From: Lagopus muta
Taxonomy: Eukaryota > Chordata > Aves > Galliformes > Phasianidae
Direction: 5' to 3'
Assembly (NCBI RefSeq): GCF_023343835.1
Contig: NC_064468.1
Span: 1 to 64,000 of the forward strand
DNA length: 64,000 nt
The number at the start of each line of letters is the position of its first letter. Position 1 is the first letter of the stretch. The notes under the pieces were generated by a model, which was not told the DNA's origin, ran no database searches, and saw only the letters and a program-made list of their open reading frames with translations. This document shows, piece after piece, positions 1-42,506 of the stretch. The position numbers were made by a program, and so were the translations under genes.

Positions 1-3000
1 AATCATGTAAAAAACCCCATATGACCTCACACAGACCTCATATGAGGACATAGCGACCAAATGAAGTCACCCGGACCAAATGACGTCCGGCGCACCAAAT
101 GACGGAGAACGCCCCAAATCATGTAAAAAACCCCATATGACCTCATACAGACCTCATATGAGGTCATGGCGACCAAATGAAGTCACCCGGACCAAATGAC
201 GTCCGGCGCACCAAATGACGGAGAACGCCCCAAATCATGTAAAAAACCCCATATGACCTCACACAGACCTCATATGAGGTCATGGCGACCAAATGAAGTC
301 ACCCGGACCAAATGACGTCCGGCGCACCAAATGACGGAGAACGCCCCATATCATGTAAAAAACCCCATATGACCTCATACAGACCTCATATGAGGACATA
401 CCGACCAAATGAAGTCACCCGGACCAAATGACGTCCGGCGCACCAAATGACGGAGAACGCCCCAAATCATGTAAAAAACCCCATATGACCTCATACAGAC
501 GTCATATGAGCTCACAGCGACCAAATGAAGTCACCTGGACCAAATGACGTCCGGCGCACCAAATGACGCAGAACGCCCCAAATCATGTAAAAAACCCCAT
601 ATGACCTCATACAGACCTCATATGAGGTCATAGCGACCAAATGAAGTCACCCGGACCAAATGACGAATGACGTCCGGCGCACCAAATGACGGAGAACGCC
701 CCAAATCATGTAAAAAACCCCATATGACCTCATACAGACCTCATATGAGGACATAGCGACCAAATGAAGTCACCCGGACCAAATGACGTCCGGCGCACCA
801 AATGACGGAGAACGCCCCAAATCATGTAAAAAACCCCATATGACCTCATACAGACGTCATATGAGCTCACAGCGACCAAATGAAGTCACCTGGACCAAAT
901 GACGTCCGGCGCACCAAATGACGCAGAACGCCCCAAATCATGTAAAAAACCCCATATGACCTCATACAGACCTCATATGAGGTCATTGCGACCAAATGAA
1001 CTCACCCGGACCAAATGACGAATGACGTCCGGCGCACCAAATGACGGAGAACGCCCCAAATCATGTAAAAAACCCCATATGACCTCATACAGACGTCATA
1101 TGAGGTCATAGCGACCAAATGAAGTCAACCGGACCAAATGACGTCCGGTGCACCAAATGACGGAGAACGCCCCAAATCATGTTAGAAACCCCATATGACC
1201 TCATACAGACGTCATATGAGGTCATAGCGACCAAATGAAGTCACCCGGACCAAATGACATCCGGCGCACCAAATGACGGAGAACGCCCCAAATCATGTAA
1301 AAAACCCCATATGACCTCATACAGACCTCATATGAGGTCATAGCGACCAAATGAAGTCACCCGGACCAAATGACGTCCGGCGCACCAAATGACGGAGAAC
1401 GCCCCAAATCATGTAAAAAACCCCATATTGACCTCATATGACCTCATATGAGGTCATAGCGACGAAATGAAGTCACCCGGACCAAATGACGTCCGGCGCA
1501 CCAAATGACGGAGAACGCCCCAAATCATGTAAAAAACCCCATATGACCTCATACAGACCTCATATGAGGTCATAGCGACCAAATGAAGTCACCCGGACCA
1601 AATGACGTCTGCCGCACCAAATGACGGAGAACGCCCCAAATCATGTAAAAAACCCCCATATGACCTCATACAGACCTCATATGAGGTCATAGCGACCAAA
1701 TGAAGTCACCCGGACCAAATGACGTCCGGCGCACCAAATGACGGAGAACGCCCCAAATCATGTAAAAAACCCCCTATGACCTCATACAGACCTCATATGA
1801 GGTCATAGCGACCAAATGAAGTCACCCGGACCAAATGACGTCCGGCGCACCAAATGACGGAGAACGCCCCAAATCATGTAAAAAACCCCATATGACCTCA
1901 TACAGACCTCATATGAGGTCATAGCGACCAAATGAAGTCACCCGGACCAAATGACGTCCGGCGCACCAAATGACGGAGAACGCCCCAAATCATGTAAAAA
2001 ACCCCATATGACCTCATATGACCTCATATGAGGTCATAGCGACCAAATGAAGTCACTCGGACCAAATGACGTCCGGCGCACCAAATGACGGAGAACGCCA
2101 CAAATCATGTAAAAAACCCCATATGACCTCATACAGACCTCATATGAGGTCATAGCGACCAAATGAAGTCACCCGGACCAAATGACGTCCGGCTCACCAA
2201 ATGACGGAGAACGCCCCCAAATCATGTAAAAAAACCCCATATGACCTCATACAGACCTCATATGAGGTCATAGTGACCAAGTGAAGTCACCCGGACCAAA
2301 TGACGTCCGGCGCACCAAATGACGGAGAACACCCCAAATCATTTAAAAAACCCCATATGACCTCATACAGACGTCATATGAGGTCATAGCGACCAAATGA
2401 AGTCACCCAGACCAAATGACGTCCGGCGCACCAAATGACGGAGAACGCCCCAAATCATGTAAAAAACCCCATATGACCTCATATGACCTCATATGAGGTC
2501 ATAGCGACCAAATGAAGTCACTCGGACCAAATGACTTCCGGCGCACCAAATGACGGAGAACGCCCCAAATCATGTAAAAAACCCCATATGACCTCATACA
2601 GACCTCATATGAGGTCATAGCGACCAAATGAACTCACCCAGACCAAATGACGTCCGGCGCACCAAATGACGGAGAACGCCCCAAATCATGTAAAAAACCC
2701 CATATGACCTCATACAGACGTCATATGAGCTCACAGCGACCAAATGAAGTCACCTGGACCAAATGACGTCCGGCGCACCAAATGACGGAGAACGCCCCAA
2801 ATCATGTAAAAAACCCCATATGACCTCATACAGACCTCATATGAGGTCATAGCGACCAAACGAAGTCACCCGGACCAAATGACATCCGGCGCACCAAATG
2901 ACCGAGAACGCCCCAAATCATGTAAAAAAACCCCATATGACCTCATACAGACGTCATATGAGGTCATAGCGACCAAATGAAGTCAACCGGACCAAATGAC

Positions 3001-3539
3001 GTCCGGTGCACCAAATGACGGAGAACGCCCCAAATCATGTAAAAAACCCCATATGACCTCATACAGACGTCATATGAGGTCATAGCGACCAAATGAAGTC
3101 ACCCGGACCAAATGGACATCCGGCGCACCAAATGACGGAGAACACCACAAATCATGTAAAAAACCCCATATGACCTCATACAGACCTCATATGAGGTCAT
3201 AGCGACCAAATGAAGTCACCCGGACCAAATGACGTCCGGCGCACCAAATGACGGAGAACGCCCCAAATCATGTAAAAAACCCCATATGACCTCATACAGA
3301 CCTCATATGAGGACATGGTGACCAAATGAAGTCACCCGGACCAAATGACGTCCGGCGCACCAAATGACGGAGAACGCCCCAAATCATGTAAAAAAAACCC
3401 CATATGACCTCATACAGACCTCATATGAGGTCATAGCGACCAAATGAAGTCACCCGGACCAAATGACGTCCGGCGCACCAAATGACGGAGAACGCCCCAA
3501 ATCATGTAAAAAAACCCCATATGACCTCATACAGACCTC

Positions 3540-6320
3540 ATATGAGGTCATGGGGACCAAATGAAGTCACCTGGACCAAATGACGTCCGGCGCACCAAAT
3601 GACGGAGAACGCCCCAAATCATGTAAAAAACCCCATATGACCTCATACAGACCTCATATGAGGTCATGGGGACCAAATGAAGTCACCCGGACCAAATGAC
3701 GTCCGGCGCACCAAATGACGGAGAACGCCCCAAATCATGTAAAAAACCCCATATGACCTCATACAGACCTCATATGAGGTCATAGCGACCAAATGAAGTC
3801 ACCCGGACCAAATGACGTCCGGCGCACCAAATGACGGAGAACGCCCCAAATCATGTAAAAAACCCCATATGACCTCACACAGACCTCATATGAGGTCATG
3901 GCGACCAAATGAAGTCACCCGGACCAAATGACGTCCGGCGCACCAAATGACGGAGAACGCCCCAAATCATGTAAAAAACCCCCTATGACCACATCCAGAC
4001 CTCATATGAGGTCATGGCGACCAAATGAAGTCACCCGGACCAAATGACGTCCGGCGCACCAAATGACGGAGAACGCCCCAAATCATGTAAAAAACCCCCA
4101 TATGACCTCATACAGACCTCATATGAGGTCATAGCGATCAAATGAAGTCACCTGGACCAAATGACGTCCCGCGGACCAAATGACGTCCGGCGCACCAAAT
4201 GACGGAGAACGCCCCAAATCATGTAAAAAACCCCATATGACCTCATACAGACCTCATATGAGGTCATGGCGACCAAATGAAGTCACCCGGACCAAATGAC
4301 GTCCGGCGCACCAAATGACGGAGAACGCCCCAAATCATGTAAAAAACCCCATATGACCTCATACAGACCTCATATGAGGTCATGGCGACCAAATGAAGTC
4401 ACCCGGACCAAATGACGTCCGGCGCACCAAATGACGGAGAACGCCCCAAATCATGTAAAAAACCCCATATGACCTCATACAGACCTCATATGAGGTCATG
4501 GCGACCAAATGAAGTCACCCGGACCAAATGACGTCCGGCGCACCAAATGACGGAGAACGCCCCAAATCATGTAAAAAACCCCATATGACCTCATACAGAC
4601 CTCATATGAGGTCATAGCGATCAAATGAAGTCACCTGGACCAAATGACGTCCCGCGGACCAAATGACGTCCGGCGCACCAAATGACGGAGAACGCCCCAA
4701 ATCATGTAAAAAACCCCATATGACCTCATACAGACCTCATATGAGGTCATGGCGACCAAATGAAGTCACCCGGACCAAATGACGTCCGGCGCACCAAATG
4801 ACGGAGAACGCCCCAAATCATGTAAAAAACCCCATATGACCTCATACAGACCTCATATGAGGTCATGGCGACCAAATGAAGTCACCCGGACCAAATGACG
4901 TCCGGCGCACCAAATGACGGAGAACGCCCCAAATCATGTAAAAAACCCCATATGACCTCATACAGACCTCATATGAGGTCATGGCGACCAAATGAAGTCA
5001 CCCGGACCAAATGACGTCCGGCGCACCAAATGACGGAGAACGCCCCAAATCATGTAAAAAACCCCATATGACCTCACACAGACCTCATATGTGGACATAC
5101 CGACCAAATGAAGTCACCCGGACCAAATGACGTCCGGCGCACCAAATGACGGAGAACGCCCCAAATCATGTAAAAAACCCCATATGACCTCATACGGACC
5201 TCATATGAGGTCATGGCGACCAAATGAAGTCACCCGGACCAAATGACGTCCGGCGCACCAAATGACGGAGAACGCCCCAAATCATGTAAAAAACCCCATA
5301 TGACCTCATACAGACCTCATATGAGGTCATACCGACCAAATGAAGTCACCCGGACCAAATGACGTCCGGCGCACCAAATGACGGAGAACGCCCCAAATCA
5401 TGTAAAAAACCCCATATGACCTCATACAGACGTCATATGAGGGCATAGCGACCAAATGAAGTCACCTGGACCAAATGACGTCCGGCGCACCGAATGACGG
5501 AGAACGCCCCAAATCATGTAAAAAACCCCACATGACCTCATACAGACCTCATATGAGGACATAGCGACCAAATGAAGTCACCCGGACCAAATGACGTCCG
5601 GCGCACCAAATGACGGAGAACGCCCCAAATCATGTAAAAAACCCCATATGACCTCATACAGACCTCATATGAGGTCATGGGGACCAAATGAAGTCACCTG
5701 GACCAAATGACGTCCGGCGCACCAAATGACGGAGAACGCCCCAAATCATGTAAAAAACCCCATATGACCTCATACAGACCTCATATGAGGTCATGGGGAC
5801 CAAATGAAGTCACCCGGACCAAATGACGTCCGGCGCACCAAATGACGGAGAACGCCCCAAATCATGTAAAAAACCCCATATGACCTCATACAGACCTCAT
5901 ATGAGGTCATAGCGACCAAATGAAGTCACCCGGACCAAATGACGTCCGGCGCACCAAATGACGGAGAACGCCCCAAATCATGTAAAAAACCCCATATGAC
6001 CTCACACAGACCTCATATGAGGTCATGGCGACCAAATGAAGTCACCCGGACCAAATGACGTCCGGCGCACCAAATGACGGAGAACGCCCCAAATCATGTA
6101 AAAAACCCCCTATGACCACATCCAGACCTCATATGAGGTCATGGCGACCAAATGAAGTCACCCGGACCAAATGACGTCCGGCGCACCAAATGACGGAGAA
6201 CGCCCCAAATCATGTAAAAAACCCCATATGACCTCATACAGACCTCATATGAGGTCATAGCGATCAAATGAAGTCACCTGGACCAAATGACGTCCGGCGG
6301 ACCAAATGACGTCCGGCGCA
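3540..6320. repeat. Duplicated satellite block, ~2.13 kb spacing
   Basis: A run of distinctive units (TCATGGGGACC, then a unit with ATGACCACATCCAGACC, then the GCGATCAAATG unit) occurs at about 3540-4200 and again at about 5660-6320. The ACATCCAGAC marker is at 3991 and 6118, an offset of 2127 bp. Several units moved together, as expected from unequal exchange or block amplification. Confidence 0.85.
4110..4690. repeat. 135-bp variant satellite units with an extra 19-bp subunit
   Basis: Two units here have the GGACCAAATGACGTCC subunit duplicated (GACGTCCCGCGGACC then GACGTCCGG), giving about 135 bp instead of 116. Their marker GCGATCAAATG ends near 4140 and again 483 bp later, which is 4 x 116 + 19. 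A third such unit lies near 6265-6320. This shows that the array can gain or lose a single 19-bp subunit, which supports the compound origin of the 116-bp unit. Confidence 0.85.
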
Positions 6321-8039
6321 CCAAATGACGGAGAACGCCCCAAATCATGTAAAAAACCCCATATGACCTCATACAGACCTCATATGAGGACATACCGACC
6401 AAATGAAGTCACCCGGACCAAATGACGTCCGGCGCACCAAATGACGGAGAACGCCCCAAATCATGTAAAAAAACCCCATATGACCTCATACAGACCTCAT
6501 ATGAGGTCATGGCGACCAAATGAAGTCACCCGGACCAAATGACGTCCGGCGCACCAAATGACGGAGAACGCCCCAAATCATGTAAAAAACCCCATATGAC
6601 CTCATACAGACCTCATATGAGGTCATGGCGACCAAATGAAGTCACCCGGACCAAATGACGTCCGGCGCACCAAATGACGGAGAACGCCCCAAATCATGTA
6701 AAAAACCCCATATGACCTCATACAGACCTCATATGAGGTCATGGCGACCAAATGAAGTCACCCGGACCAAATGACGTCCGGCGCACCAAATGACGGAGAA
6801 CGCCCCAAATCATGTAAAAAACCCCATATGACCTCACACAGACCTCATATGTGGACATACCGACCAAATGAAGTCACCCGGACCAAATGACGTCCGGCGC
6901 ACCAAATGACGGAGAACGCCCCAAATCATGTAAAAAACCCCATATGACCTCATACGGACCTCATATGAGGTCATGGCGACCAAATGAAGTCACCCGGACC
7001 AAATGACGTCCGGCGCACCAAATGACGGAGAACGCCCCAAATCATGTAAAAAACCCCATATGACCTCATACAGACCTCATATTGAGGTCATACCGACCAA
7101 ATGAAGTCACCCGGACCAAATGACGTCCGGCGCACCAAATGACGGAGAACGCCCCAAATCATGTAAAAAACCCCATATGACCTCATACAGACGTCATATG
7201 AGGGCATAGCGACCAAATGAAGTCACCTGGACCAAATGACGTCCGGCGCACCGAATGACGGAGAACGCCCCAAAATCATGTAAAAAACCCCACATGACCT
7301 CATACAGACCTCATATGAGGACATAGCGACCAAATGAAGTCACCCGGACCAAATGACGTCCGGCGCACCAAATGACGGAGAACGCCCCAAATCATGTAAA
7401 AAACCCCATATGACCTCACACAGACCTCATATGAGGTCATGGCGACCAAATGAAGTCACCCGGACCAAATGACGTCCGGCGCACCAAATGACGGAGAACG
7501 CCCCAAATCATGTAAAAAACCCCATATGACCTCATACAGACCTCATATGAGGACATACCGACCAAATGAAGTCACCCGGACCAAATGACGTCCGGCGCAC
7601 CAAATGACGGAGAACGCCCCAAATCATGTAAAAAACCCCATATGACCTCATACAGACCTCATATGAGGACATACCGACCAAATGAAGTCACCCGGACCAA
7701 ATGACGTCCGGCGCACCAAATGACGGAGAACGCCCCAAATCATGTAAAAAACCCCATATGACCTCATACAGACCTCATATGAGGTCATGGCGACCAAATG
7801 AAGTCACCCGGACCAAATGACGTCCGGCGCACCAAATGACGGAGAACGCCCCAAATCATGTAAAAAACCCCATATGACCTCATACAGACCTCATATGAGG
7901 TCATGGCGACCAAATGAAGTCACCCGGACCAAATGACGTCCGGCGCACCAAATGACGGAGAACGCCCCAAATCATGTAAAAAACCCCATATGACCTCACA
8001 CAGACCTCATATGTGGACATACCGACCAAATGAAGTCAC

Positions 8040-11000
8040 CCGGACCAAATGACGTCCGGCGCACCAAATGACGGAGAACGCCCCAAATCATGTACAAAAC
8101 CCCATATGACCTCATACAGACCTCATATGTGGACATAGCGACCAAATGAAGTCACCCGGACCAAATGACGTCCGGCGCACCAAATGACGGAGAACGCCCC
8201 AAATCATGTAAAAAACCCCATATGACCTCATACAGACCTCATATGAGGTCATGGCGGACCAAATGAAGTCACCCGGACCAAATGACGTCCGGCGCACCAA
8301 ATGACGGAGAACGCCCCAAATCATGTAAAAAACCCCATATGACCTCATACAGACCTCATATGAGGTCATGGCGACCAAATGAAGTCACCGGGGACCAAAT
8401 GACGTCCGGCGCACCAAATGACGGAGAACGCCCCAAATCATGTAAAAAACCCCATATGACCTCATACAGACGTCATATGAGGGCATAGCGACCAAATGAA
8501 GTCACCCGGACCAAATGACGTCCGGCGCACCGAATGACGGAGAACGCCCCAAATCATGTAAAAAACCCCATATGACCTCACACAGACCTCATATGAGGTC
8601 ATGGCGACCAAATGAAGTCACCCGGACCAAATGACGTCCGGCGCACCAAATGACGGAGAACGCCCCAAATCATGTAAAAAACCCCATATGACCTCATACA
8701 GACCTCATATGAGGTCATGGCGACCAAATGAAGTCACCCGGACCAAATGACGTCCGGCGCACCAAATGACGGAGAACGCCCCAAATCATGTAAAAAACCC
8801 CCATATGACCTCATACAGACCTCATATGAGGTCATACCGACCAAATGAAGTCACCCGGACCAAATGACGTTCCGGCGCACCAAATGACGGAGAACGCCCC
8901 AAATCATGTAAAAAAACCCCATATGACCTCATACAGACCTCATATGTGGACATACCGACCAAATGAAGTCACCCGGACCAAATGACGTCCGGCGCACCAA
9001 ATGACGGAGAACGCCCCAAATCATGTAAAAAACCCCATATGACCTCATACAGACCTCATATGTGCACATACCGACCAAATGAAGTCACCCGGACCAAATG
9101 ACGTCCGGCGCACCAAATGACGGAGAACGCCCCAAATCATGTAAAAAAACCCCATATGACCTCATACAGACCTCATATGAGGTCATGGCGACCAAATGAA
9201 GTCACCCGGACCCAAATGACGTCCGGCGCACCAAATGACGGAGAACGCCCCAAATCATGTAAAAAACCCCATATGACCTCATACAGACCTCATATGAGGT
9301 CATGGCGACCAAATGAAGTCACCCGGACCAAATGACGTCCGGCGCACCAAATGACGGAGAACGCCCCAAATCATGTAAAAAACCCCATATGACCTCATAC
9401 AGACGTCATATGAGGGCATAGCGACCAAATGAAGTCACCCGGACCAAATGACGTCCGGCGCACCGAAATGACGGAGAACGCCCCAAATCATGTAAAAAAC
9501 CCCATATGACCTCACACAGACCTCATATGAGGGTCATGGCGACCAAATGAAGTCACCCGGACCAAATGACGTCCGGCGCACCAAATGACGGAGAACGCCC
9601 CAAATCATGTAAAAAACCCCATATTGACCTCATACAGACCTCATATGAGGTCATGGCGACCAAATGAAGTCACCCGGACCAAATGACGTCCGGCGCACCA
9701 AATGACGGAGAACGCCCCAATCATGTAAAAAACCCCATATGACCTCATACAGACCTCATATGAGGTCATGGCGACCAAATGAAGTCACCCGGACCAAATG
9801 ACGTCCGGCGCACCAAATGACGGAGAACGCCCCAAATCATGTAAAAAACCCCATATGACCTCACACAGACCTCATATGTGGACATACCGACCAAATGAAG
9901 TCACCCGGACCAAATGACGTCCGGCGCACCAAATGACGGAGGAACGCCCCAAATCATGTACAAAACCCCATATGACCTCATACAGACCTCATATGTGGAC
10001 ATAGCGACCAAATGAAGTCACCCGGACCAAATGACGTCCGGCGCACCAAATGACGGAGAACGCCCCAAATCATGTAAAAAACCCCATATGACCTCATACA
10101 GACCTCATATGAGGTCATGGCGACCAAATGAAGTCACCCGGACCAAATGACGTCCGGCGCACCAAATGACGGAGAACGCCCCAAATCATGTAAAAAAACC
10201 CCATATGACCTCATACAGACCTCATATGAGGTCATGGCGACCAAATGAAGTCACCGGGACCAAATGACGTCCGGCGCACCAAATGACGGAGAACGCCCCA
10301 AATCATGTAAAAAACCCCATATGACCTCATACAGAACGTCATATGAGGGCATAGCGACCAAATGAAGTCACCCGGACCAAATGACGTCCGGCGCACCGAA
10401 TGACGGAGAACGCCCCAAAATCATGTAAAAAACCCCATATGACCTCACACAGACCTCATATGAGGTCATGGCGACCAAATGAAGTCACCCGGACCAAATG
10501 ACGTCCGGCGCACCAAATGACGGAGAACGCCCCAAATCATGTAAAAAACCCCATATGACCTCATACAGACCTCATATGAGGTCATGGCGACCAAATGAAG
10601 TCACCCGGACCAAATGACGTCCGGCGCACCAAATGACGGAGAACGCCCCAAATCATGTAAAAAACCCCATATGACCTCATACAGACCTCATATGAGGTCA
10701 TACCGACCAAATGAAGTCACCCGGACCAAATGACGTCCGGCGCACCAAATGACGGAGAACGCCCCAAATCATGTAAAAAAACCCCATATGACCTCATACA
10801 GACCTCATATGTGGACATACCGACCAAATGAAGTCACCCGGACCAAATGACGTCCGGCGCACCAAATGACGGAGAACGCCACCAAATCATGTAAAAAACC
10901 CCATATGACCTCATACAGACCTCATATGTGCACATACCGACCAAATGAAGTCACCCGGACCAAATGACGTCCGGCGCACCAAATGACGGAGAACGCCCCA

Positions 11001-14000
11001 AATCATGTAAAAAACCCCATATGACCTCATACAGACCTCATATGAGGTCATGGCGACCAAATGAAGTCACCCGGACCAAATGACGTCCGGCGCACCAAAT
11101 GACGGAGAACGCCCCAAATCATGTAAAAAACCCCATATGACCTCATACAGACCTCATATGAGGTCATGGCGACCAAATGAAGTCACCCGGCACCAAATGA
11201 CGTCCGGCGCACCAAATGACGGAGAACGCCCCAAATCATGTAAAAAACCCCATATGACCTCATACAGACGTCATATGAGGGCATAGCGACCAAATGAAGT
11301 CACCCGGACCAAATGACGTCCGGCGCATCCGAATGACGGGAGAACGCCCCAAATCATGTAAAAAACCCATATGACCTCACACAGACCTCATATGAGGTCA
11401 TGGCGACCAAATGAAGTCACCCGGACCAAATGACGTCCGGCGCACCAAATGACGGAGAACGCCCCAAAATCATGTAAAAAACCCCATATGACCTCATACA
11501 GACCTCATATGTGGACATACCGACCAAATGAAGTCACCCGGACCAAATGACATCGGCGCACCAAATGACGGAGAACGCCCCAAATCATGTAAAAAACCCC
11601 ATATGACCTCATACAGACCTCATATGAGGTCATGGCGACAAATGAAGTCACCCGGACCAAATGACGTCCGGCGCACCAAATGACGGAGAACGCCCCAAAT
11701 CATGTAAAAAACCCCATATGACCTCATACAGACCTCATATGAGGTCATGGCGACCAAATGAAGTCACCCGGACCAAATGACGTCCGGCGCACCAAATGAC
11801 GGAGAACGCCCCAAATCATGTAAAAAAACCCCATATGACCTCATACAGACCTCATATGTGCACATACCGACCAAATGAAGTCACCCGGACCAATGACGTC
11901 CGGCGCACCAAATGACGGAGAACGCCCCAAATCATGTAAAAAACCCCATATGACCTCATACAGACCTCATATGTGGACATAGCGACCAAATGAAGTCACC
12001 CGGACCAAATGACGTCCGGCGCACCAAATGACGGAGAACGCCCCAAATCATGTAAAAAACCCCATATGACCTCATACAGACCTCATATGTGGACATAGCG
12101 ACCAAATGAAGTCACCCGGACCAAATGACGTCCGGCGCACCAAATGACGGAGAACGCCCCAAATCATGTAAAAAACCCCATATGACCTCATACAGACCTC
12201 ATATGAGGTCATGGCGACCAAATGAAGTCACCCGGACCAAATGACGTCCGGCGCACCAAATGACGGAGAACGCCCCAAATCATGTAAAAAACCCCATATG
12301 ACCTCATACAGACCTCATATGAGGTCATGGCGACCAAATGAAGTCACCCGGACCAAATGACGTCCGGCGCACCAAATGACGGAGAACGCCCCAAAATCAT
12401 GTAAAAAAACCCCATATGACCTCATACAGACCTCATATGTGGACATACCGACCAAATGAAGTCACCCGGACCAAATGACGTCCGGCGCACCAAATGACGG
12501 AGAACGCCCCAAATCATGTAAAAAAACCCCTTATGACCTCATACAGACCTCATATGAGGTCATGGCGACCAAATGAAGTCACCCGGACCCAAATGACGTC
12601 CGGCGCACCAAATGACAGAGAACGCCCCAAATCATGTAAAAAACCCCATATGACCTCATACAGACCTCATATGAGGACATGGCGACCAAATGAAGTCACC
12701 CGGACCAAATGACGTCCGGCGCACCAAATGACGGAGAACGCCCCAAATCATGTAAAAAACCCCATATGACCTCATACAGACGTCATATGAGGGCATAGCG
12801 ACCAAATGAAGTCACCCGGACCAAATGACGTCCGGCGCACCGAATGACGGAGAACGCCCCAAATCATGTAAAAAACCCCATATGACCTCATACAGACCTC
12901 ATATGAGGTCATGGCGACCAAATGAAGTCACCCGGACCAAATGACGTCCGGCGCACCAAATGACGGAGAACGCCCCAAATCATGTAAAAAACCCCATATG
13001 ACCTCATACAGACCTCATATGAGGTCATGGCGACCAAATGAAGTCACCCGGACCAAATGACGTCCGGCGCACCAAATGACGGAGAACGCCCCAAATCATG
13101 TAAAAAACCCCATATGACCTCATACAGACGTCATATGAGGGCATAGCGACCAAATGAAGTCACCCGGACCAAATGACGTCCGGCGCACCGAATGACGGAG
13201 AACGCCCCAAATCATGTAAAAAACCCCATATGACCTCACACAGACCTCATATGAGGTCATGGCGACCAAATGAAGTCACCCGGACCAAATGACGTCCGGC
13301 GCACCAAATGACGGAGAACGCCCCAAATCATGTAAAAAACCCCATATGACCTCATACAGACCTCATATGTGGACATACCGACCAAATGAAGTCACCCGGA
13401 CCAAATGACATCCGGCGCACCAAATGACGGAGAACGCCCCAAATCATGTAAAAAACCCCATATGACCTCATACAGACCTCATATGAGGTCATGGCGACCA
13501 AATGAAGTCACCCGGACCAAATGACGTCCGGCGCACCAAATGACGGAGAACGCCCCAAATCATGTAAAAAACCCCATATGACCTCATACAGACCTCATAT
13601 GAGGTCATGGCGACCAAATGAAGTCACCCGGACCAAATGACGTCCGGCGCACCAAATGACGGAGAACGCCCCAAATCATGTAAAAAACCCCATATGACCT
13701 CATACAGACCTCATATGTGCACATACCGACCAAATGAAGTCACCCGGACCAAATGACGTCCGGCGCACCAAATGACGGAGAACGCCCCAAATCATGTAAA
13801 AAACCCCATATGACCTCATACAGACCTCATATGAGGACATACCGACCAAATGAAGTCACCCGGACCAAATGACGTCTGGCGCACCAAATGACGGAGAACG
13901 CCCCAAATCATGTAAAAAACCCCATATGACCTCATACAGACCTCATATGTGGACATAGCGACCAAATGAAGTCACCCGGACCAAATGACGTCCGGCGCAC

Positions 14001-23080: not shown

Positions 23081-23599
23081 AAAAACCCCATATGACCTCA
23101 TACAGACCTCATATGTGGACATACCGACCAAATGAAGTCACCCGGACCAAATGACGTCCGGCGCACCAAATGACGGAGAACGCCCCAAATCATGTAAAAA
23201 ACCCCATATGACCTCATACAGACCTCATATGAGGTCATAGCGACCAAATGAACTCACCCGGACCAAATGACGTCCGGCGCACCAAAGGACGGAGAACGCC
23301 CCAAATCATGTAAAAAACCCCATATGACCTCATACAGACCTCATATGAGGTCATAGCGACCAAATGAAGTCACCCGGACCAAATGACGTCCGGCGCACCA
23401 AAGGACGGAGAACGCCCCAAATCATGTAAAAAACCCCATATGACCTCATACAGACCTCATATGAGGTCATGGCGACCAAATGAAGTCACCCGGACCAAAT
23501 GACGTCCGGCGCACCAAATGACGGAGAACGCCCCAAGTCATGTAAAAAACCCCATATGACCTCATACAGACCTCATATGAGGTCATAGCGACCAAATGA

Positions 23600-26500: not shown

Positions 26501-29500
26501 AGTCACCCGGACCAAATGACGTCCGGCGCACCAAAGGACGGAGAACGCCCCAAATCATGTAAAAAACCCCATATGACCTCATACAGACCTCATATGAGGT
26601 CATGGCGACCAAATGAAGTCACCCGGACCAAATGACGTCCGGCGCACCAAATGACGGAGAACGCCCCAAATCATGTAAAAAACCCCATATGACCTCATAC
26701 AGACCTCATATGAGGTCATAGCGACCAAATGAAGTCACCCGGACCAAATGACGTCCGGCGCACCAAAGGACGGAGAACGCCCCAAATCATGTAAAAAAAC
26801 CCCATATGACCTCATACAGACCTCATATGAGGTCATAGCGACCAAATGAAGTCACCCGGACCAAATGACGTCCGGCGCACCAAAGGACGGAGAACGCCCC
26901 AAATCATGTAAAAAACCCCATATGACCTCATACAGACCTCATATGAGGTCATAGCGACCAAATGAAGTCACCCGGACCAAATGACGTCTGGCGCACGAAA
27001 TGACGGAGAACGCCCTGAATCATGTAAAAAACCCCATATGACCTCATACAGACCTCATATGTGGACATACCGACCAAATGAAGTCACCCGGACCAAATGA
27101 CGTCCGGCGCACCAAAACACGGAGAACGCCCCAAATCATGTAAAAAACCCCATATGACCTCATACAGACCTCATATGAGGTCATGGCGACCAAATGAAGT
27201 CACCCGGACCAAATGACGTCCGGCGCACCAAATGACGGAGAACGCCCCAAATCATGTAAAAAACCCCATTTGACCTCATACAGACCTCATATGAGGACAT
27301 ACCGACCAAATGAAGTCACCCGGACCAAATGACGTCCGGCGCACCAAATGACGGAGAACGCCCCAAATCATGTAAAAAACCCCATTTGACCTCAAACAGA
27401 CCTCATATGTGGACATACTGATCAAATGAACTCACCCGGACCAAATGACGTCCGGCGCACCAAATGACGGAGAACGCCCCAAATCATGTAAAAAACCCCA
27501 TATGACCTCATACAGACCTCATATGAGGACATACCGACCAAATGAAGTCACCCGGACCAAATGACGTCCGGCGCACCAAATGACGGAGAACGCCCCAAAT
27601 CATGTAAAAAACCCCATATGACCTCATACAGACCTCATATGAGGTCATAGCGACCAAATGAAGTCACCCGGACCAAATGACGTCCGGCGCACCAAATGAC
27701 GGAGAACGCCCCAAATCATGTAAAAAACCCCATATGACCTCATACAGACCTCATATGAGGACATACCGACCAAATGAAGTCACCCGGACCAAATGACGTC
27801 CGGCGCACCAAATGACGGAGAACGCCCCAAATCATGTAAAAAACCCCATATGACCTCATACAGACCTCATATGAGGTCATGGCGACCAAATGAAGTCACC
27901 CGGACCAAATGACGTCCGGCGCACCAAATGACGGGAGAACGCCCCAAATCATGTAAAAAACCCCATATGACCTCATACAGACCTCATATGAGGACATAGC
28001 GACCAAATGAAGTCACCCGGACCAAATGACGTCCGGCGCACCAAATGACGGAGAACGCCCCAAATCATGTAAAAAACCCCATATGACCTCATACAGACCT
28101 CATATGAGGTCATGGCGACCAAATGAAGTCACCCGGACCAAATGACGTCGGGCGCACCAAAATGACGGAGAACGCCCCAAATCATGTAAAAAACCCCATA
28201 TGACCTCACACAGACCTCATATGAGGTCATACCGACAAAATGAAGTCACCCGGACCAAATGACGTCCGGCGCACCAAAGGACGGAGAACGCCCCAAATCA
28301 TGTAAAAAACCCCATATGACCTCATACAGACCTCATATGAGGTCATGGCGACCAAATGAAGTCACCCGGACCAAATGACGTCCGGCGCACCAAATGACGG
28401 AGAACGCTCCAAATCATGTAAAAAACCCCATATGACCTCATACAGACGTCATATGAGGTCATACCGACCAAATGAAGTCACCCGGACCAAATGACGTCCG
28501 GCGCACCAAATGACGGAGAACGCCCCAAATCATGTAAAAAACCCCATATGACCTCATACAGACCTCATATGAGGTCATAGCGACCAAATGAAGTCACCCG
28601 GACCAAATGACGTCCGGCGCACCAAATGACGGAGAACGCCCCAAATCATGTAAAAAACCCCATATGACCTCATACAGACCTCATATGAGGTCATAGCGAC
28701 CAAATGAAGTCACCCGGACCAAATGACGTCCGGCGCACCAAATGACGGAGAACGCCCCAAATCACGTAAAAAAACCCCATATGACCTCATACAGACGTCA
28801 TATGAGGTCATAGCGACCAAATGAAGTCACCCGGACCAAATGACGTCCGGCGCACCAAAGGACGGAGAACGCCCCAAATCATGTAAAAAACCCCATATGA
28901 CCTCATACAGACCTCATATGAGGTCATGGCGACCAATGAAGTCACCCGGACCAAATGACGTCCGGCGCACCAAATGACGGAGAACGCCCCAAATCATGTA
29001 AAAAACCCCATATGACCTCATACAGACCTCATATGAGGTCATAGCGACCAAATGAAGTCACCCGGACCAAATGACGTCCGGCGCACCAAAGGACGGAGAA
29101 CGCCCCAAAATCATGTAAAAAACCCCATATGACCTCATACAGGACCTCATATGAGGTCATTGCGACCAAATGAAGTCACCCGGACCAAATGACGTCTGGC
29201 GGACAAAATGACGGAGAACGCCCTGAATCATGTAAAAAACCCCATATGACCTCATACAGACCTCATATGAGGTCATAGCGACCAAATGAAGTCACCCGGA
29301 CCAAATGACGTCCGGCGCACCAAAGGACGGAGAACGCCCCAAATCATGTAAAAAAACCCCATATGACCTCATACAGACCTCATATGAGGTCATAGCGACC
29401 AAATGAAGTCACCCGGACCAATGACGTCCGGCGCACCAAATGACGGAGGAACGCCCCAAATCATGAAAAAAACCCCATATGACCTCATACAGACATCATA

Positions 29501-30960
29501 TGAGGTCACAGAGACCAAATGAAGTCACCCGGACCAAATGACGTCCGGCGCACCAAATGACGGAGAACGCCCCAAATCATGTAAAAAAACCCCATATGAC
29601 CTCATACAGACCTCATATGAGGTCATGGCGACCAAATGAAGTCACCCGGACCAAATGACGTCGGCGCACCAAATGACGGAGAACGCCCCAAATCATGTAA
29701 AAAACCCCATATGACCTCATACAGACCTCATATGAGGTCATAGCGACCAAATGAAGTCACCCGGACCAAATGACGTCCGGCGCACCAAATGACGGAGAAC
29801 GCCCCAAATCATGTAAAAAACCCCATATGACCTCATACAGACGTCATATGAGGTCATAGCGACCAAATGAAGTCACCCGGACCAAATGACGTCCGGCGCA
29901 CCAAATGACGGAGAACGCCCTGAATCATGTAAAAAACCCCATATGACCTCATACAGACCTCATATGTGGACATACCGACCAAATGAAGTCACCCGGACCA
30001 AATGACGTCCGGCGCACCAAAACACGGAGAACGCCCCAAATCATGTAAAAAACCCCATATGACCTCATACAGACCTCATATGAGGTCATGGCGACCAAAT
30101 GAAGTCACCCGGACCAAATGACGTCCGGCGCACCAAATGACGGAGAACGCCCCAAATCATGTAAAAAACCCCATTTGACCTCATACAGACCTCATATGAG
30201 GACATACCGACCAAATGAAGTCACCCGGACCAAATGACGTCCGGCGCACCAAATGACGGAGAACGCCCCAAATCATGTAAAAAACCCCATTTGACCTCAA
30301 ACAGACCTCATATGTGGACATACTGATCAAATGAACTCACCCGGACCAAATGACGTCCGGCGCACCAAATGACGGAGGACGCCCCAAATCATGTAAAAAA
30401 CCCCATATGACCTCATACAGACCTCATATGAGGACATACCGACCAAATGAAGTCACCCGGACCAAATGACGTCCGGCGCACCAAATGACGGAGAACGCCC
30501 CAAATCATGTAAAAAACCCCATATGACCTCATACAGACCTCATATGAGGACATACCGACCAAATGAAGTCACCCGGACCAAATGACGTCCGGCGCACCAA
30601 ATGACGGAGAACGCCCCAAATCATGTAAAAAACCCCATATGACCTCATACAGACCTCATATGAGGTCATGGCGACCAAATGAAGTCACCCGGACCAAATG
30701 ACGTCCGGCGCACCAAATGACGGAGAACGCCCCAAATCATGTAAAAAACCCCATATGACCTCATACAGACCTCATATGTGGACATACCGACCAAATGAAG
30801 TCACCCGGACCAAATGACGTCCGGCGAACCAAATGACGGAGAACCCCCCAAATCATGTAAAAAACCCCATATGACCTCATACAGACCTCATATGTGGACA
30901 TACCGACCAAATGAAGTCACCCGGACCAAATGACGTCCGGCGCACCAAAACACGGAGAAC
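23600..30960. repeat. Higher-order satellite block with CCCTGAATC and AAAACACGG marker units
   Basis: A marker series (CGCACGAAATG with CGCCCTGAATC, then CACCAAAACACGG, then CCCATTTGACC, then CATACTGATCAAATGAAC) occurs near 23.64, 24.69, 27.01 and 29.92 kb. Spacings are about 1.05, 2.32 and 2.9 kb, near multiples of 116. A partial copy lies near 30.9 kb. The copies are nearly identical to each other, more so than to units outside the block. Confidence 0.82.
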
Positions 30961-31899
30961 GCCCCAAATCATGTAAAAAACCCCATATGACCTCATACAG
31001 ACCTCATATGAGGTCATGGCGACCAAATGAAGTCACCCGGACCAAATGACGTCCGGCGCACCAAATGACGGAGAACGCCCCAAATCATGTAAAAAAACCC
31101 CATTTGACCTCATACAGACCTCATATGAGGACATACCGACCAAATGAAGTCACCCGGACCAAATGACGTCCGGCGCACCAAATAACGGAGAACGCCCCAA
31201 ATCATGTAAAAAACCCCATATGACCTCATACAGACCTCATAATTGGACATACCGACCAAATGAAGTCACCCGGACCAAATGACGTCCGGCGCACCAAATA
31301 ACGGAGAACGCCCCAAATCATGTAAAAAACCCCATATGACCTCATACAGACCTCATATGAGGTCATAGCGACCAAATGAAGTCACCCGGACCAAATGACG
31401 TCCGGCGCACCAAATGACGGAGAACGCCCCAAATCATGTAAAAAACCCCATATGACCTCATACAGACCTCATACGAGGTCATAGCGACCAAATGAAGTCA
31501 CCTGGACCAAATGACGTCCGGCGCACCAAATGACGGAGAACGCCCCAAATCATGTAAAAAACCCCCTATGACCTCATACAGACGTCATATGAGGTCATAG
31601 CGACTAAATGAAGTCACCCGGACCAAATGACGTCCGGCGCACCAAATGACGGAGAACGCCCCAAATCATGTAAAAAACCCCATATGACCTCATACAGACC
31701 TCATATAAGGTCATAGCGACCAAATGAAGTCACCCGGACCAAATGACGTCCGGCGCACCAAATGACGGAGAACGCCCCAAATCATGTAAAAAACCCCATA
31801 TGACCTCATACAGACCTCATATGAGGTCATAGCGACCAAATGAAGTCACCCGGACCAAATGACGTCCGGCACACCAAATGACGGAGAACGCCCCAAATC

Positions 31900-32520
31900 A
31901 TGTAAAAAACCCCATATGACCTCATACAGACCTCATATGGGGACTAAGCGACCAAATGAAGTCACCCAAACCAAATGACGTCCGGCGCACCAGATGACGG
32001 AGAACGCCCCAAATCATGTAAAAAACCCCATATGACCTCATACAGACCTCATATGAGGTCATAGCGAACAAATGAAGTCACCTGGACCAAATGACGTCCG
32101 GCGCACCAAATGACGGAGAACGCCCCAAATCATGTAAAAAACCCCCTATGACCTCATACAGACCTCATATGGGGACTAAGCGACCAAATGAAGTCACCCA
32201 AACCAAATGACGTCCGGCGCACCAGATGACGGAGAACGCCCCAAATCATGTAAAAAACCCCATATGACCTCATACAGACCTCATATGAGGTCATAGCGAA
32301 CAAATGAAGTCACCTGGACCAAATGACGTCCGGCGCACCAAATGACGGAGAACGCCCCAAATCATGTAAAAAACCCCATATGACCTCATAGAGACCTCAT
32401 ATGGGGACTTAGCGACCAAATGAAGTCACCCAAACCAAATGACGTCCGGCGCACCAGATGACGGAGAACGCCCCAAATCATGTAAAAAACCCCATATGAC
32501 CTCATACAGACCTCATATAG
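31900..32520. repeat. Dimeric (232-bp) satellite sub-array
   Basis: The unusual unit reading CATATGGGGACTAAGCGACC with CACCCAAACCAAATG recurs at about 31936, 32168 and 32401 (TTAGCG in the last). It alternates with a unit carrying ATAGCGAACAAATG and CACCTGGACC. The spacing of 232 bp is exactly two units, so a dimer has been amplified locally. Confidence 0.8.
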
Positions 32521-35500
32521 GGACATACCGACCAAATGAAGTCACCCGGACCAAATGACGTCCGCCACACCAAATGACGGAGAACGCCCCAAATCATGTA
32601 AAAAACCCCCTATGACCTCATACAGACGTCATATGAGGTCATAGCGACTAAATGAAGTCACCCGGACCAAATGACGTCCGGCGCACCAAATGACGGAGAA
32701 CGCCCCAAATCATGTAAAAAACCCCATATGACCTCATACAGACCTCATATGAGGTCATAGCGACCAAATGAAGTCACCCGGACCAAATGACGTCCGGCGC
32801 ACCAAATGACGGAGAACGCCCCAAATCATGTAAAAAACCCCCTATGACCTCATACAGACCTCATATGAGGTCATAGCGACCAAATGAAGTCACCCGGACC
32901 AAATGACGTCCGGCGCACCAGATGACGGAGAACGCCCCAAATCATGTAAAAAACCCCATATGACCTCATACAGACCTCATATGAGGTCATAGCGACCAAA
33001 TGAAGTCACCCGGACCAAAAGACGTCCGTCGCACCAAATGACGGAGAACGCCCCAAATCATGTAAAAAACCCCATATGACCTCATACAGACGTCATATGA
33101 GGTCATAGCGACCAAATGAAGTCACCCAAACCAAATGACGTCCGGCGCACCAAATGACGGAGAACGCCCCAAATCATGTAAAAAACCCCATATGACCTCA
33201 TACAGACCTCATATGAGGTCATAGCGAACAAATGAAGTCACCTGGACCAAATGACGTCCGGCGCACCAAATGACGGAGAACGCCCCAAATCATGTAAAAA
33301 ACCCCCTATGACCTCATACAGACGTCATATGAGGTCATAGCGACTAAATGAAGTCACCCGGACCAAATGACGTCCGGCGCACCAAATGACGGAGAACGCC
33401 CCAAATCATGTAAAAAACCCCATATGACCTCATACAGACCTCATATGAGGTCATAGCGACCAAATGAAGTCACCCGGACCAAAAGACGTCCGTCGCACCA
33501 AATGACGGAGAACGCCCCAAATCATGTAAAAAACCCCATATGACCTCATACAGACGTCATATGAGGTCATAGCGACCAAATGAAGTCACCCAAACCAAAT
33601 GACGTCCGGCGCACCAAATGATGGAGAACGCCCCAAATCATGTAAAAAACCCCATATGACAGCATGCAGACGCCATATGAGGTCATAGCGACCAAATGAA
33701 GTCACCCGGACCAAATGACGTCCGGCGCACCAAATGACGGAGAACGCCCCAAATCATGTAAAAAAACCCCATATGACCTCATACAGACGTCATATGAGGT
33801 CATAGCGACCAAATGAAGTCACCCGGACCAAATGACGTCCGGCGCACCAAATGACGGAGAACGCCCCAAATCATGTAAAAAACCCCATATGACCTCATAC
33901 AGACCTCATATGGGGACATAGCGACCAAATGAAGTCACCCTAACCAAATGACGTCCGGCGCACCAAATGACGGAGAACACCCCAAATCATGTAAAAAACC
34001 CCCTATGACCTCATACAGACGTCATATGAGGTCATAGCGACCAAATGAAGTCACCCGGACCAAATGACGTCCGGCGCACCAAATGACGGAGAACGCCCCA
34101 AATCATGTAAAAAACCCCATATGACCTCATACAGACCTCATATGAGGTCATAGCGACCAAATGAAGTCACCCGGACCAAATGACGTCCGGCGCACCAAAT
34201 GACGGAGAACGCCCCAAATCATGTAAAAAACCTCATATGACCTCATACAGACCTCATATGAGGTCATAGCGACCAAATGAAGTCACCCGGACCAAATGAC
34301 GTCCGGCGCACCAAATGATGGAGAACGCCCCAAATCATGTAAAAAACCCCATATGACCTCATACAGACCTCATATGAGGTCATAGCGACCAAATGAAGTC
34401 ACCCGGACCAAATGACGTCCGGCGCACCAAATGACGGAGAACGCCCCAAATCATGTAAAAAACCCCCTATGACCTCATACAGACCTCATATCAGGTCATA
34501 GCGAACAAATGAAGTCACCCGGACCAAATGACGTCCGGCGCACCAAATGACGGAGAACGCCCCAAATCATGTAAAAAACCCCATATGACCTCATACAGAC
34601 CTCATATGAGGTCATAGCGACCAAATGAAGTCACCCGGACCAAATGACGTCCGGCGCACCAAATGACGGAGAACGCCCCAAATCATGTAAAAAACCCCAT
34701 ATGACCTCATATAGACCTCATATGAGGTCATAGCGACCAAATGAAGTCAACCGGACCAAATGACGTCCGGCGCACCAAATGACGGAGAACGCCCCAAATC
34801 ATGTAAAAAACCCCATATGACCTCATACAGACCTCATATGAGGTCATAGCGACCAAATGAACTCACCCGGACCAAATGATGTCCGGCGCACCAAATGACG
34901 GAGAACGCCCCAAATCATGTAAAAAACCCCATATGACCTCATACAGACCTCATATGGGGACATAGCGACCAAATGAAATCACCCGGACCAAATGACGTCC
35001 GGCGCACCAAATGACGGAGAACGCCCCAAATCATGTAAAAAACCCCATATGACCTCATACAGACCTCATATGAGGTCATAGCGACCAAATGAACTCACCC
35101 GGACCAAATGACGTCCGGCGCACCAAATGACGGAGAACGCCCCAAATCATGTAAAAAACCCCATATGACCTCATACAGACCTCATAATTGGACATACCGA
35201 CCAAATGAAGTCAACCGGACCAAATGACGTCCGGCGCACCAGATGACGGAGAACGCCCCAAATCATGTAAAAAACCCCCATATGACCTCATACAGACGTC
35301 ATATGAGGTCATAGCGACCAAATGAAGTCACCCGGACCAAATGACGTCCGGAGCACCAAATGACGGAGAACGCCCCAAATCATGTAAAAAAACCCCATAT
35401 GACCTCATACAGACCTCATATGAGGTCATAGCGACCAAATGAAGTCACTCCGGTCCAAATGACGTCCGGCGCACCAAATGACGGAGAAACGCCCCAAATC

Positions 35501-38500
35501 ATGTAAAAAACCCCCCTATGACCTCATACAGACCTCATATGAGGTCATAGCGACCAAATGAAGTCACCCGGACCAATGACGTCCGGCGCACCAAATGACG
35601 GAGAACGCCCCAAATCATGTAAAAAACCCCATATGACCTCATACAGACCTCATATGGGGACATACCGACCAAATGAAGTCACCCGGACCAAATGACGTCC
35701 GGCGCACCAAATGACGGAGAACGCCCCAAATCATGTAAAAAAACCCCCTATGACCTCATACAGACCTCATATGAGGTCATAGCGACCAAATGTAGTCACC
35801 CGGACCAAATGACGTCCGGCGCACCAGATGACGGAGAACGCCCCAAATCATGTAAAAAACCCCCCTATGACCTCATACAGACCTCATATGAGGTCATGGC
35901 GACCAAATGAAGTCACCCGGACCAAATCACGTCCGGCGCACCAAATGACGGAGAACGCCCCAAATCATGTAAAAAAACCCATATGACCTCATACAGACCT
36001 CATATGAGGTCATAGCGACCAAATGAAGTCACCCGGACCAAATGACGTCCGGCGCACCAAATGACGGAGAACTGCCCCAAATCATGTAAAAAACCCCCTA
36101 TGACCTCATACAGACCTCATATGAGGTCATAGCGACCAAAATGAACTCACCCGGACCAAATGACGTTCCGGCGCACCAAATGACGGAGAACGCCCCAAAT
36201 CATGTAAAAACCCCATATGACCTCATACAGACCTCATAATTGGACATACCGACCAAATGAAGTCAACCGGACCAAATGACGTCCGGCGCACCAAATGACG
36301 GAGAACGCCCCAAATCATGTAAAAAACCCCATATGACCTCATACAGACCTCATATGAGGTCATAGCGACCAAATGAAGTCACCCGGACCAAATGACATCC
36401 GGCGCACCAAATGACGGAGAACGCCCCAAATCATGTAAAAAACACCATATGACCTCATACAGACCTCATATGAGGTCATAGCGACCAAATGAAGTCACCC
36501 AGATCAAATGACGTCCGGCGCACCAAATGACGGAGAACGCCCCAAATCATGTAAAAAACCCCATATGACCTCATACAGACGTTCATATGAGGTCATAGCG
36601 ACCAAATGAAGTCACCCGGACCAAATGACGTCCGGCGCACCAAATGACGGAGAACGCCCCAAATCATGTAAAAAACCCCATATGACCTCATACAGACCTC
36701 ATATGAGGTCATAGCGACCAAATGAAGTCACCCGGACCAAATGACGTCCGGCGCACCAAATGACGGAGAACGCCCCAAATCATGTAAAAAACCCCATATG
36801 ACCTCATACAGACCTCATATGAGGTCATAGCGACCAAATGAAGTCACCCGACCAAATGACGTCCGGCGCACCAAATGACGGAGAACGCCCCAAATCATGT
36901 AAAAAAACCCCATATGACCTCATACAGACGTCATATGAGGTCATAGTGACCAAATGAAGTCACCGGGACCAAATGACGTCCGGCGCACCAAATGACGGAG
37001 AACGCCCCAAATCATGTAAAAAACCCCCTATGACCTCATACAGACGTCATATGAGGTCATAGCGACCAAATGAAGTCACCCAGACCAAATGACATCCAGC
37101 GCACCAAATGACGGAGAACGCCCCAAATCATGTAAAAAACCCCCTATGACCTCATACAGACCTCATATGAGGTCATAGCGACCAAATGAAGTCACCCGGA
37201 CCAAATGACGTTCGGCGCACCAAATGACGGAGAACGCCCCAAATCATGTAAACAACCCCATATGACCTCATACAGACCTCATATGAGGTCATGGCGACCA
37301 AATGAAGTCACCCGGACCAAATGACATCCGGCGCACCAAATGACGGAGAACGCCCCAAATCATGTAAAAAACCCCATATGACCTCATACAGACCTCATAT
37401 GAGGTCATAGCGACCAAATGAAGTCACCCGGACCAAATGACGTCCGGCGCACCAAATGACGGAGAACGCCCCAAATCATGTAAAAAACCCCATATGACCT
37501 CATACAGACCTCATATGGGGACATACCGACCAAATGAAGTCACCCGGACCAAATGACGTCCGGCACACCAAATGACGGAGAACGCCCCAAATCATGTAAA
37601 AAACCCCATATGACCTCATACAGACCTCATATGAGGTCATAGCGACCAAATGAACTCACCCGGACCAAATGACGTCCGGCGCACCAAATGACGGAGAACG
37701 CCCCAAATCATGTAAAAAACCCCATATGACCTCATACAGACCTCATATGAGGTCATAGCGACCAAATGAAGTCACCCGGACCAAACGACGTCCGGCGCAC
37801 CAAATGACGGAGAACGCCCCAAATCATGTAAAAAACCCCCTATGACCTCATACAGACCTCATATGAGGTCATAGCGACCAAATGAACTCACCCGGACCAA
37901 ATGACGTCCGGCGCACCAAATGACGGAGAACGCCCCAAATCATGTAAAAAACCCCCTATGACCTCATACAGACCTCATATGAGGTCATAGCGACCAAATG
38001 AACTCACCCGGACCAAATGACGTCCGGCGCACCAAATGACGGAGAACGCCCCAAATCATGTAAAAAACCCCCTATGACCTCATACAGACCTCATATGAGG
38101 TCATAGCGACCAAATGAACTCACCCGGACCAAATGACGTCCGGCGCACCAAATGACGGAGAACGCCCCAAATCATGTAAAAAACCCCATATGACCTCATA
38201 CAGACCTCATATGAGGTCATAGCGACCAAATGAAGTCACCCGGACCAAATGACGTCCGGCGCACCAAATGACGGAGAACGCCCCAAATCATGTAAAAAAC
38301 CCCATATGACCTCATACAGACCTCATATGAGGTCATAGCGACCAAATGAAGTCACCCGGACCAAATGACGTCCGGCGCACCAAATGACGGAGAACGCCCC
38401 AAATCATGTAAAAAACCCCATATGACCTCATACAGACCTCATATGAGGTCATAGCGATCAAATGAAGTCACCCGGACCAAATGACGTCCGGCGCACCAGA

Positions 38501-38665
38501 TGACGGAGAACGCCCCAAATCATGTAAAAAACCCCATATGACCTCATACAGACCTCATATGAGGACATAGCGACCAAATGAAGTCACCCGGACCAAATGA
38601 CGTCCGGCGCACCAAATGACGTAAAACACACCAAAGGACGTCAATCACCCCATATGACCTCATGG

Positions 38666-42040: not shown

Positions 42041-42070
42041 CTTTCCCTAAACTTTCCCGTATCCTGGGCT

Positions 42071-42080: not shown

Positions 42081-42137
42081 ACTGCAGCAGAGAGGATCTC
42101 TGCCCTTCTGCCTCTCTCTCCTCCCCTCTCTCCTTCT

Positions 42138-42485: not shown

Positions 42486-42506
42486 GCGCCGCGCCGCCCC
42501 GCTCAG

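What the first reader, a model, noticed from the sequence alone, without database searches (positions are those of the whole stretch)
1..38665. 38-kb satellite with a 116-bp unit built from six 19-bp elements
The unit is a nested repeat: CCAAATGA-type cores recur at a spacing of 19, 19, 19, 19, 21 and 19 bp. Some units have gained a seventh 19-bp element (near 4150, 4635 and 6290), which shows how the unit grows. I do not recognise it as a named avian satellite. It could be a chromosome-specific or centromere-proximal array.
Basis: partly seen in the sequence, partly recalled or inferred. Interest (0 to 1): 0.72.

Follow-up and report, generated by a model that had tools for sequence, protein, structure and literature searches.

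The report
Mirror-image satellite around amplified bird genes
A long run of a 116-letter DNA repeat, in a genome whose size matches that of the rock ptarmigan, sits in mirror image at both ends of one scaffold around at least eleven near-identical gene copies; no description of it was found, but it is an ordinary kind of fast-changing satellite DNA with no shown function.

Summary
Window 1-38,663 is a 116-bp tandem array (331 full units, 98.0% to consensus); the unit contains six related elements spaced 19,21,19,19,19,19. The 739 genome-wide matches to a 49-bp core all lie on one 396-kb scaffold: 306 in the window, 433 in an inverted array at its far end. Between them lie at least eleven 99-100% identical copies of a CCDC81-like gene piece, two (+) and nine (-). 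The arrays share a consensus, an inner junction and 14 unit types, but no run of three identical units, although their flanks are 98.6% alike: unit order has been rewritten separately. CpG transitions are raised 4.5-5-fold over other C/G sites, suggesting germline methylation. A 170-bp relic on contig C1 matches at 81% in 116-bp register, so the unit is older than the arrays. Seven-element units are rare and differ between arrays. Most likely: a locus-restricted satellite flanking an amplified gene cluster, evolving by unequal exchange. Centromere function is untested.

The parts
1..38663 (+). 116-bp satellite array, left copy, cut off by the scaffold's first base; 331 full units, 98.0% mean identity to consensus
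   Evidence: all 306 forward genome matches of the 49-bp core lie here
4078..4213 (+). seven-element unit, 136 bp, element 5 duplicated
4562..4696 (+). seven-element unit, 135 bp, same derived base and insertion point as the unit at 4,078
6205..6339 (+). seven-element unit, 135 bp, same derived base and insertion point, insertion differing by one base
578..700 (+). 123-bp unit with an AATGACG insertion; a second one starts at 933
38515..38667 (+). inner edge: last full unit with edge-specific changes, then a degenerate partial unit; the junction also occurs, inverted, at the right array (C48 about 342,727)
38668..45400 (.). flank with diverged 10/11- and 21-bp repeats and a GC-rich island at 42,040-42,780; among the 60 matches listed the island is full length only here and, inverted, at C48:338,616-339,353
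45407..64000 (+). first copy of the amplicon; parts of it recur in each of the six interior pieces of C48 that were read
47865..54030 (+). 50-bp minisatellite inside the amplicon
59300..63320 (-). CCDC81-like gene (HU-CCDC81_euk_2 match; HU-CCDC81_euk_1 partial match below its cut-off); outer limits judged by eye
   Evidence: the 61,600-62,600 piece occurs at least 11 times on C48 at 99-100%

Best explanation
This is a locus-restricted satellite that flanks, in mirror image, a cluster of amplified CCDC81-like genes on a GC-rich scaffold, most likely heterochromatin of a very small (dot) microchromosome of the rock ptarmigan. The 116-bp unit arose from a 19-21-bp element, and its six-element form is old because a diverged fragment in the same register lies on contig C1. 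The present arrays were made and are kept uniform by unequal exchange or conversion that copies blocks of several units over distances of about 1-6 kb. An inverted duplication that included the inner edge, the flank and amplicons put the satellite at both ends; since then the order of units has been rewritten in each array, while the flank changed by about 1% in substitutions. Raised CpG decay suggests that the arrays are methylated in the germ line. I expect no sequence-specific job beyond packaging as heterochromatin. Shown from sequence: unit structure, confinement of core matches to one scaffold, inverted arrangement in the assembly, block copying, CpG decay, in-register relic. Inferred: methylation, inverted duplication as the cause, dot-chromosome location, lack of a specific function.
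For: Array and unit. Confined to C48, 306 + 433 = 739 of 739 core matches. Species: 165 contigs and 1,026,658,476 bp against 165 scaffolds and 1,026,771,810 bp for bLagMut1. Inverted flank, 8,818 columns at 98.57%, 81 mismatches. Shared inner junction. At least eleven copies of the gene piece at 99-100%, two (+) then nine (-); CCDC81 domains. Block copying: longest run of identical consecutive units 8 (left) and 7 (right), 0 of 100 shuffles of each array reaching it; no shared run of 3 or more between arrays; identical units become rarer with distance. CpG transitions per site and unit 0.0155 and 0.0090, against 0.0031 and 0.0020 at other C/G sites. Relic: 138 of 170 aligned positions, one gap, in 116-bp register. 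Setting: interior pieces of C48 have GC 0.57-0.62, and chicken dot-chromosome pericentromeric heterochromatin is rich in satellite DNA and multicopy genes (PMC9974502, passages).
Against: C48 bears no chromosome name, so 'dot' rests on GC content, repeats and amplified genes; the W is not excluded, the bird being female. No methylation, chromatin or expression data were seen. The arrays are still close: units of different arrays are 96.2% alike on average, against 96.5% and 96.4% within, and 127 of 331 left and 120 of 460 right units belong to the 14 shared types, so exchange between the arrays is not excluded. A/T sites also show many transitions (0.0104 and 0.0081 per site), but these come from a few common variants: at sites below 3% the rates are 0.0023 and 0.0016, against 0.0126 and 0.0090 for CpG. 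Copies of one unit are not independent, so these ratios have no proper error. The inverted arrangement could be an assembly join; 241,198 of 396,253 bases of C48 were not read. Similarity of the unit to the neighbouring 10/11/21-bp repeats was inconclusive (score 47; shuffles mean 27, SD 4.9, maximum 62 of 300).
Confidence: 0.6

Rival explanations
1. The array is the centromeric or centromere-core satellite of one ptarmigan chromosome, having replaced the usual repeat there.
For: Core matches confined to one scaffold with both ends still inside the array, so more may be missing. Chicken sub/metacentric macrochromosomes usually carry chromosome-specific tandem repeats in their centromeres (PMC9974502, passages).
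Against: In chicken, acrocentric chromosomes use the 41-bp CNM repeat and centromere cores often hold (TTAGGG)n; exact (TTAGGG)2 and the TTTTC-N5-GAAAA dyad are absent from the window, though the rest of C48 was not tested for them. CpG decay suggests methylation, while chicken centromere cores are undermethylated. The assembled inner edge of both arrays leads into an amplified gene cluster.
Confidence: 0.17
2. The satellite is real but the mirror image is an assembly effect: two haplotypes or two separate loci joined head to head in one scaffold.
For: A flank identity of 98.6% could be allelic (inference; heterozygosity was not measured); scaffold ends lie in repeats; the published assembly has 210 spanned gaps and 241,198 bases of C48 were not read.
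Against: The orientation switch, narrowed to C48:97.4-101.4 kb, has no N in the 7,100 bases read and no inverted self-match there at E 1e-5, so it is not a simple fold-back: the high-identity match on the (+) side ends near window position 47.8 kb and that on the (-) side starts at window position 64 kb. The arms hold different numbers of gene copies, 2 and 9.
Confidence: 0.25
3. It is a known, widely shared galliform satellite described in sources not held here.
For: The in-register relic shows that the family is old; many cytogenetic satellite papers are probably outside the open-access library (not counted); no repeat library or other bird genome could be searched.
Against: Text searches for 10-base core strings found 50 papers; none of the 25 listed is about a bird satellite by its title. 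Topic searches showed none with this unit in their listings.
Confidence: 0.15

Closest known systems
[quoted passage not shown] 2023, PMC9974502; passages read)
   Same: GC-rich sequence full of tandem repeats, with multicopy genes next to satellite DNA.
   Different: Chromosome not assigned, expression unknown, gene family here CCDC81-like ('CCDC81' 0 times in that paper's main text), and the satellite lies in mirror image at both ends of the cluster.
PO41 and CNM 41-bp repeats of galliforms (PMC4301066, PMC3091757, PMC9974502; passages read)
   Same: Tandem repeats of galliform chromosomes, small ones included; PO41 also occurs in inverted tracts.
   Different: Unit length 116 bp made of six 19-21-bp elements, not 41 bp; the dyad printed for sate-21 and called similar to CNM's is absent from the window. 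Their sequences were not in the passages read, so they were not aligned.
Macro-dyad satellite arrays of Tribolium (PMC13081366; passages read)
   Same: Satellite arrays in inverted orientation, giving long mirror-image structures.
   Different: There, subarrays within one array face each other and the satellites occupy likely (peri)centromeres of all chromosomes; here two arrays are separated by about 304 kb of amplified sequence on one scaffold.
Sex-chromosome palindromes with ampliconic genes (recalled, no call)
   Same: Inverted large duplications with near-identical multicopy genes.
   Different: Not known to be on a sex chromosome; arms unequal (2 and 9 copies) and no inverted self-match at the switch.

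Membership tests
Satellite DNA (non-coding tandem family under concerted evolution) | long head-to-tail array of near-identical units | tested here: met
   331 and 460 full units, mean identity to consensus 98.0% and 97.6%
Satellite DNA (non-coding tandem family under concerted evolution) | turnover by unequal exchange or conversion | tested here: met
   longest block runs 8 and 7 units, 0 of 100 shuffles of each array reaching them; identity falls with distance
Higher-order repeat of the alpha-satellite type | regular periodicity of diverged monomers above the unit | tested here: not met
   lags 1-40 units give mean identities of 0.9653-0.9690, slightly above the shuffled baselines 0.9656 and 0.9641 (SD about 0.0006) in most lags, with no series of multiples; the highest is lag 23 in the right array. 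Longer lags were not scanned for periodicity
Chromosome-specific satellite | confined to one chromosome | tested here: inconclusive
   739 of 739 core matches on scaffold C48, but C48 bears no chromosome name, its ends are open and there is no FISH
Avian centromeric satellite | CENP-A occupancy | not testable with these tools
   no ChIP data
Avian centromeric satellite | association with CNM-type repeats or (TTAGGG)n, as in chicken | tested here: inconclusive
   none in the window by exact pattern, but the right array and the interior of C48 were not tested
CENP-B-box satellite (mammalian type) | CENP-B box in the unit | tested here: not met
   best match in the consensus has 3 of 9 fixed positions wrong; 0 exact in the left array (motif recalled)
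PO41/CNM 41-bp family | 41-bp unit | tested here: not met
   period 116 with 19-21-bp sub-elements
Dot-chromosome heterochromatin amplicon | multicopy near-identical genes beside satellite DNA | tested here: met
   at least 11 copies of a gene piece at 99-100% on C48, satellite at both ends
Dot-chromosome heterochromatin amplicon | location on a dot chromosome, testis-biased expression | not testable with these tools
   scaffold without a chromosome name, no RNA data

The most novel reading that the evidence does not exclude
The satellite and the CCDC81-like amplicons form one unit of evolution: a 116-bp satellite specific to one small chromosome brackets a selfish or testis-driven gene amplicon in mirror image, and the inverted satellite and minisatellite arrays themselves drive the inversions and copy-number changes, possibly next to or as that chromosome's centromere.
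Probability: 0.1. Interest if true: 0.7.

Novelty: new member of a known kind. Interest (0 to 1): 0.4.

Why it matters
It gives a marker confined, in this assembly, to a single scaffold, so one FISH probe could place C48 and perhaps name a small chromosome that assemblies leave unresolved. The two arrays share a consensus and an edge while their flanks differ by about 1% in substitutions, which would allow a direct measure of how fast satellite order turns over relative to ordinary sequence, if the mirror image is real. The relic on C1 lets the age and ancestral form of the family be traced in other galliforms.

Tried and rejected
A dispersed satellite: no other contig among the 739 core matches; a dimer pattern at up to 1 mismatch gave 0 matches, a weak test, since the arrays and the C1 relic do not match it either. 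Regular higher-order repeat: no series of lags. Common origin with the neighbouring 10/11/21-bp repeats: inconclusive. A more relic-like inner edge: 43 of 51 against 45 of 56, not decisive. A conserved palindrome in element 2: variants at positions 40, 48 and 51 break it rather than compensate (read by eye), so not claimed. CREB-type sites: TGACGTCA occurs 0 times in the left array, although the relic contains it by eye; not claimed. Structured RNA: 0 Rfam families at gathering scores in the window. One comparison (edgeL against edgeR, 46 of 168) was out of register and is discarded; one search gives the proper alignment.

Paper searches, listed of found: 6 of 6, 25 of 95, 20 of 29, 25 of 50, 15 of 993, 5 of 5 (no bird paper by title), 12 of 7,041 (no bird CCDC81 paper seen), 15 of 63, 15 of 35. 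Papers were seen as listings and abstract openings, except PMC10320755, PMC4301066, PMC9974502, PMC3091757, PMC12954441 and PMC13081366, of which passages were read.
Full report
What is there. The window is the first 64 kb of scaffold C48, which is 396,253 bp long. The held genome has 1,026,658,476 bases in 165 contigs; the published rock ptarmigan assembly bLagMut1 has 165 scaffolds and 1,026,771,810 bases (passages of PMC10320755). I take the species as Lagopus muta with high but not full certainty. From base 1 to 38,663 the sequence is a 116-bp tandem repeat. Stepwise alignment gives 331 full units, 98.0% identical on average to their consensus. The consensus divides into six elements spaced 19,21,19,19,19,19, with mean pairwise identity 0.593 against a maximum of 0.393 in 5000 shuffles.

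Where else it is. A 49-bp core at up to 3 mismatches occurs 739 times in the genome, 306 forward and 433 reverse, with 0 matches of the reversed control pattern. All 306 forward matches are in the window and all 433 reverse ones are in a second array at the other end of C48, from about 342.7 kb to the last base. That array holds 460 full units with the same 116-bp consensus, 97.6% mean identity. Both ends of the scaffold thus run out inside the satellite, and about 92 kb of it is assembled. The only other relative found is a 170-bp stretch on contig C1. One search reports 229 matches to that relic in a list that is cut; every row shown other than its own place is on C48. The search for diverged relatives is weak: it skips very common words and scored 1 of 4, 9 of 11 and 1 of 4 candidates, and it did not report the query's own place.

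The mirror image. The sequence inside the right array aligns with that inside the left array in inverted orientation, 8,818 columns at 98.57% with 81 mismatches, and the degenerate inner edge of the satellite is nearly the same on both sides. Between the arrays a 1-kb piece of a CCDC81-like gene (Pfam HU-CCDC81_euk_2, E 1.1e-17; HU-CCDC81_euk_1, E 1.8e-4, below its cut-off) occurs 11 times at 99-100% identity: two copies (+) and nine (-), 22-32 kb apart except for 15 kb across the switch. The other 30 of 41 matches lie on C22, C27, C29, C30, C37 and C38 at 67-83%; 40 of 95 candidates were scored, so the counts are lower bounds. Among 60 matches listed, the GC-rich island of the flank is full length only at the two ends of the scaffold's interior. 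The switch of orientation lies between 97.4 and 101.4 kb. It contains no N and no inverted self-match, and the high-identity matches on its two sides come from different points of the amplicon, which speaks against a simple fold-back artefact. Of C48, 155,055 bases were read and 241,198 were not, so gaps elsewhere are possible.

How it evolves. Inside each array, blocks of identical consecutive units recur: longest 8 units at a distance of 20 in the left array and 7 units at a distance of 7 in the right one; none of 100 shuffles of each array reaches these. Identical pairs of units fall from 5-7% at up to 50 units to 2% beyond 200 units in the left array, and from 3-5% to 1% in the right one. 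Between the arrays there is no shared run of 3 or more units. Yet they are not strangers: 14 unit types are common out of 142 and 194, and these make up 127 of 331 left and 120 of 460 right units; units of different arrays are 96.2% alike, against 96.5% and 96.4% within. Of variants at 1% or more, 14 are shared, out of 37 left and 30 right. So the order of units has been rewritten since the inverted duplication while the flank changed by about 1%, but the pool of variants overlaps; separate turnover from a common stock or some exchange between arrays would both fit. The seven-element units differ in the two arrays: element 5 is duplicated in the three on the left and element 4 in the three on the right. 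Gains of an element have thus happened more than once but stay rare, and two right-array units have lost 5 bp.

Methylation. The unit has 7 CpGs with no depletion (observed/expected 1.05). Transitions at CpG sites run at 0.0155 (left) and 0.0090 (right) per site and unit, against 0.0031 and 0.0020 at other C/G sites; 13 of 14 and 14 of 14 CpG positions show the transition, against 17 of 43 and 16 of 43 other C/G positions. A/T sites show 0.0104 and 0.0081, carried by a few common variants; at sites below 3% they drop to 0.0023 and 0.0016, while CpG stays at 0.0126 and 0.0090. This is what germ-line methylation would leave, but copies are not independent.

Age. The C1 relic aligns with the consensus over 170 positions, 138 identical with one gap, straight across 1.5 units in register. 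The six-element unit is thus older than the present arrays. I give no date, since no rate was measured.

What it does. My best account is a passive, methylated, locus-restricted satellite next to an amplified gene cluster, in the manner of chicken dot-chromosome heterochromatin (PMC9974502, passages). The dot-chromosome placement is inference. A centromeric role is open but has no support: exact (TTAGGG)2, the TTTTC-N5-GAAAA dyad and the CENP-B box are absent from the window, and chicken centromere cores are undermethylated.

Novelty. No match was seen in the listings of the open-access library for the core strings or for galliform or grouse satellites by topic. This does not cover subscription journals, unlisted hits or repeat libraries. 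I class it as a new member of a known kind.

Noticed in passing
G000:C38:801160-840552: A tandem cluster of CCDC81-like pieces at about 67-70% identity to the window copy, mostly 2.4-2.5 kb apart: a second, separate amplification of the same gene family.
   Followed up: no
window 47865-54030: A 50-bp minisatellite inside the amplicon, with an inverted relative starting near 63.6 kb (by eye); such inverted pairs could serve as sites for inversions. The orientation switch of C48 lies in or near this type of repeat.
   Followed up: partly
window 54000-56480: A gene-like stretch on the + strand, apparently with several exons, of unknown family; one piece has a weak zf-CCCH_3 match below the curated cut-off.
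   Followed up: partly
window 42240-42410 and 46290-46450: Two GC-rich island pieces about 90% alike in inverted orientation; the shorter one recurs along C48 in the amplified part.
   Followed up: partly
window 38700-42040, 42780-43250, 44640-45920, 57500-58230, 58950-59190: Diverged 10/11- and 21-bp repeats (CATAGGGACCCC type), in both orientations, reminiscent of galliform PO41 (likeness recalled; PO41's sequence was not in the passages read).
   Followed up: partly
window 40640-41150 and 43250-44630: Stretches that look like CR1 retrotransposon ends (recognised from memory, no call).
   Followed up: no
L064:1-380 (C48:185701-186080): LTR-like stretch (by eye) next to the outer end of an amplicon copy, with a related piece in L067; looked at only.
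   Followed up: no
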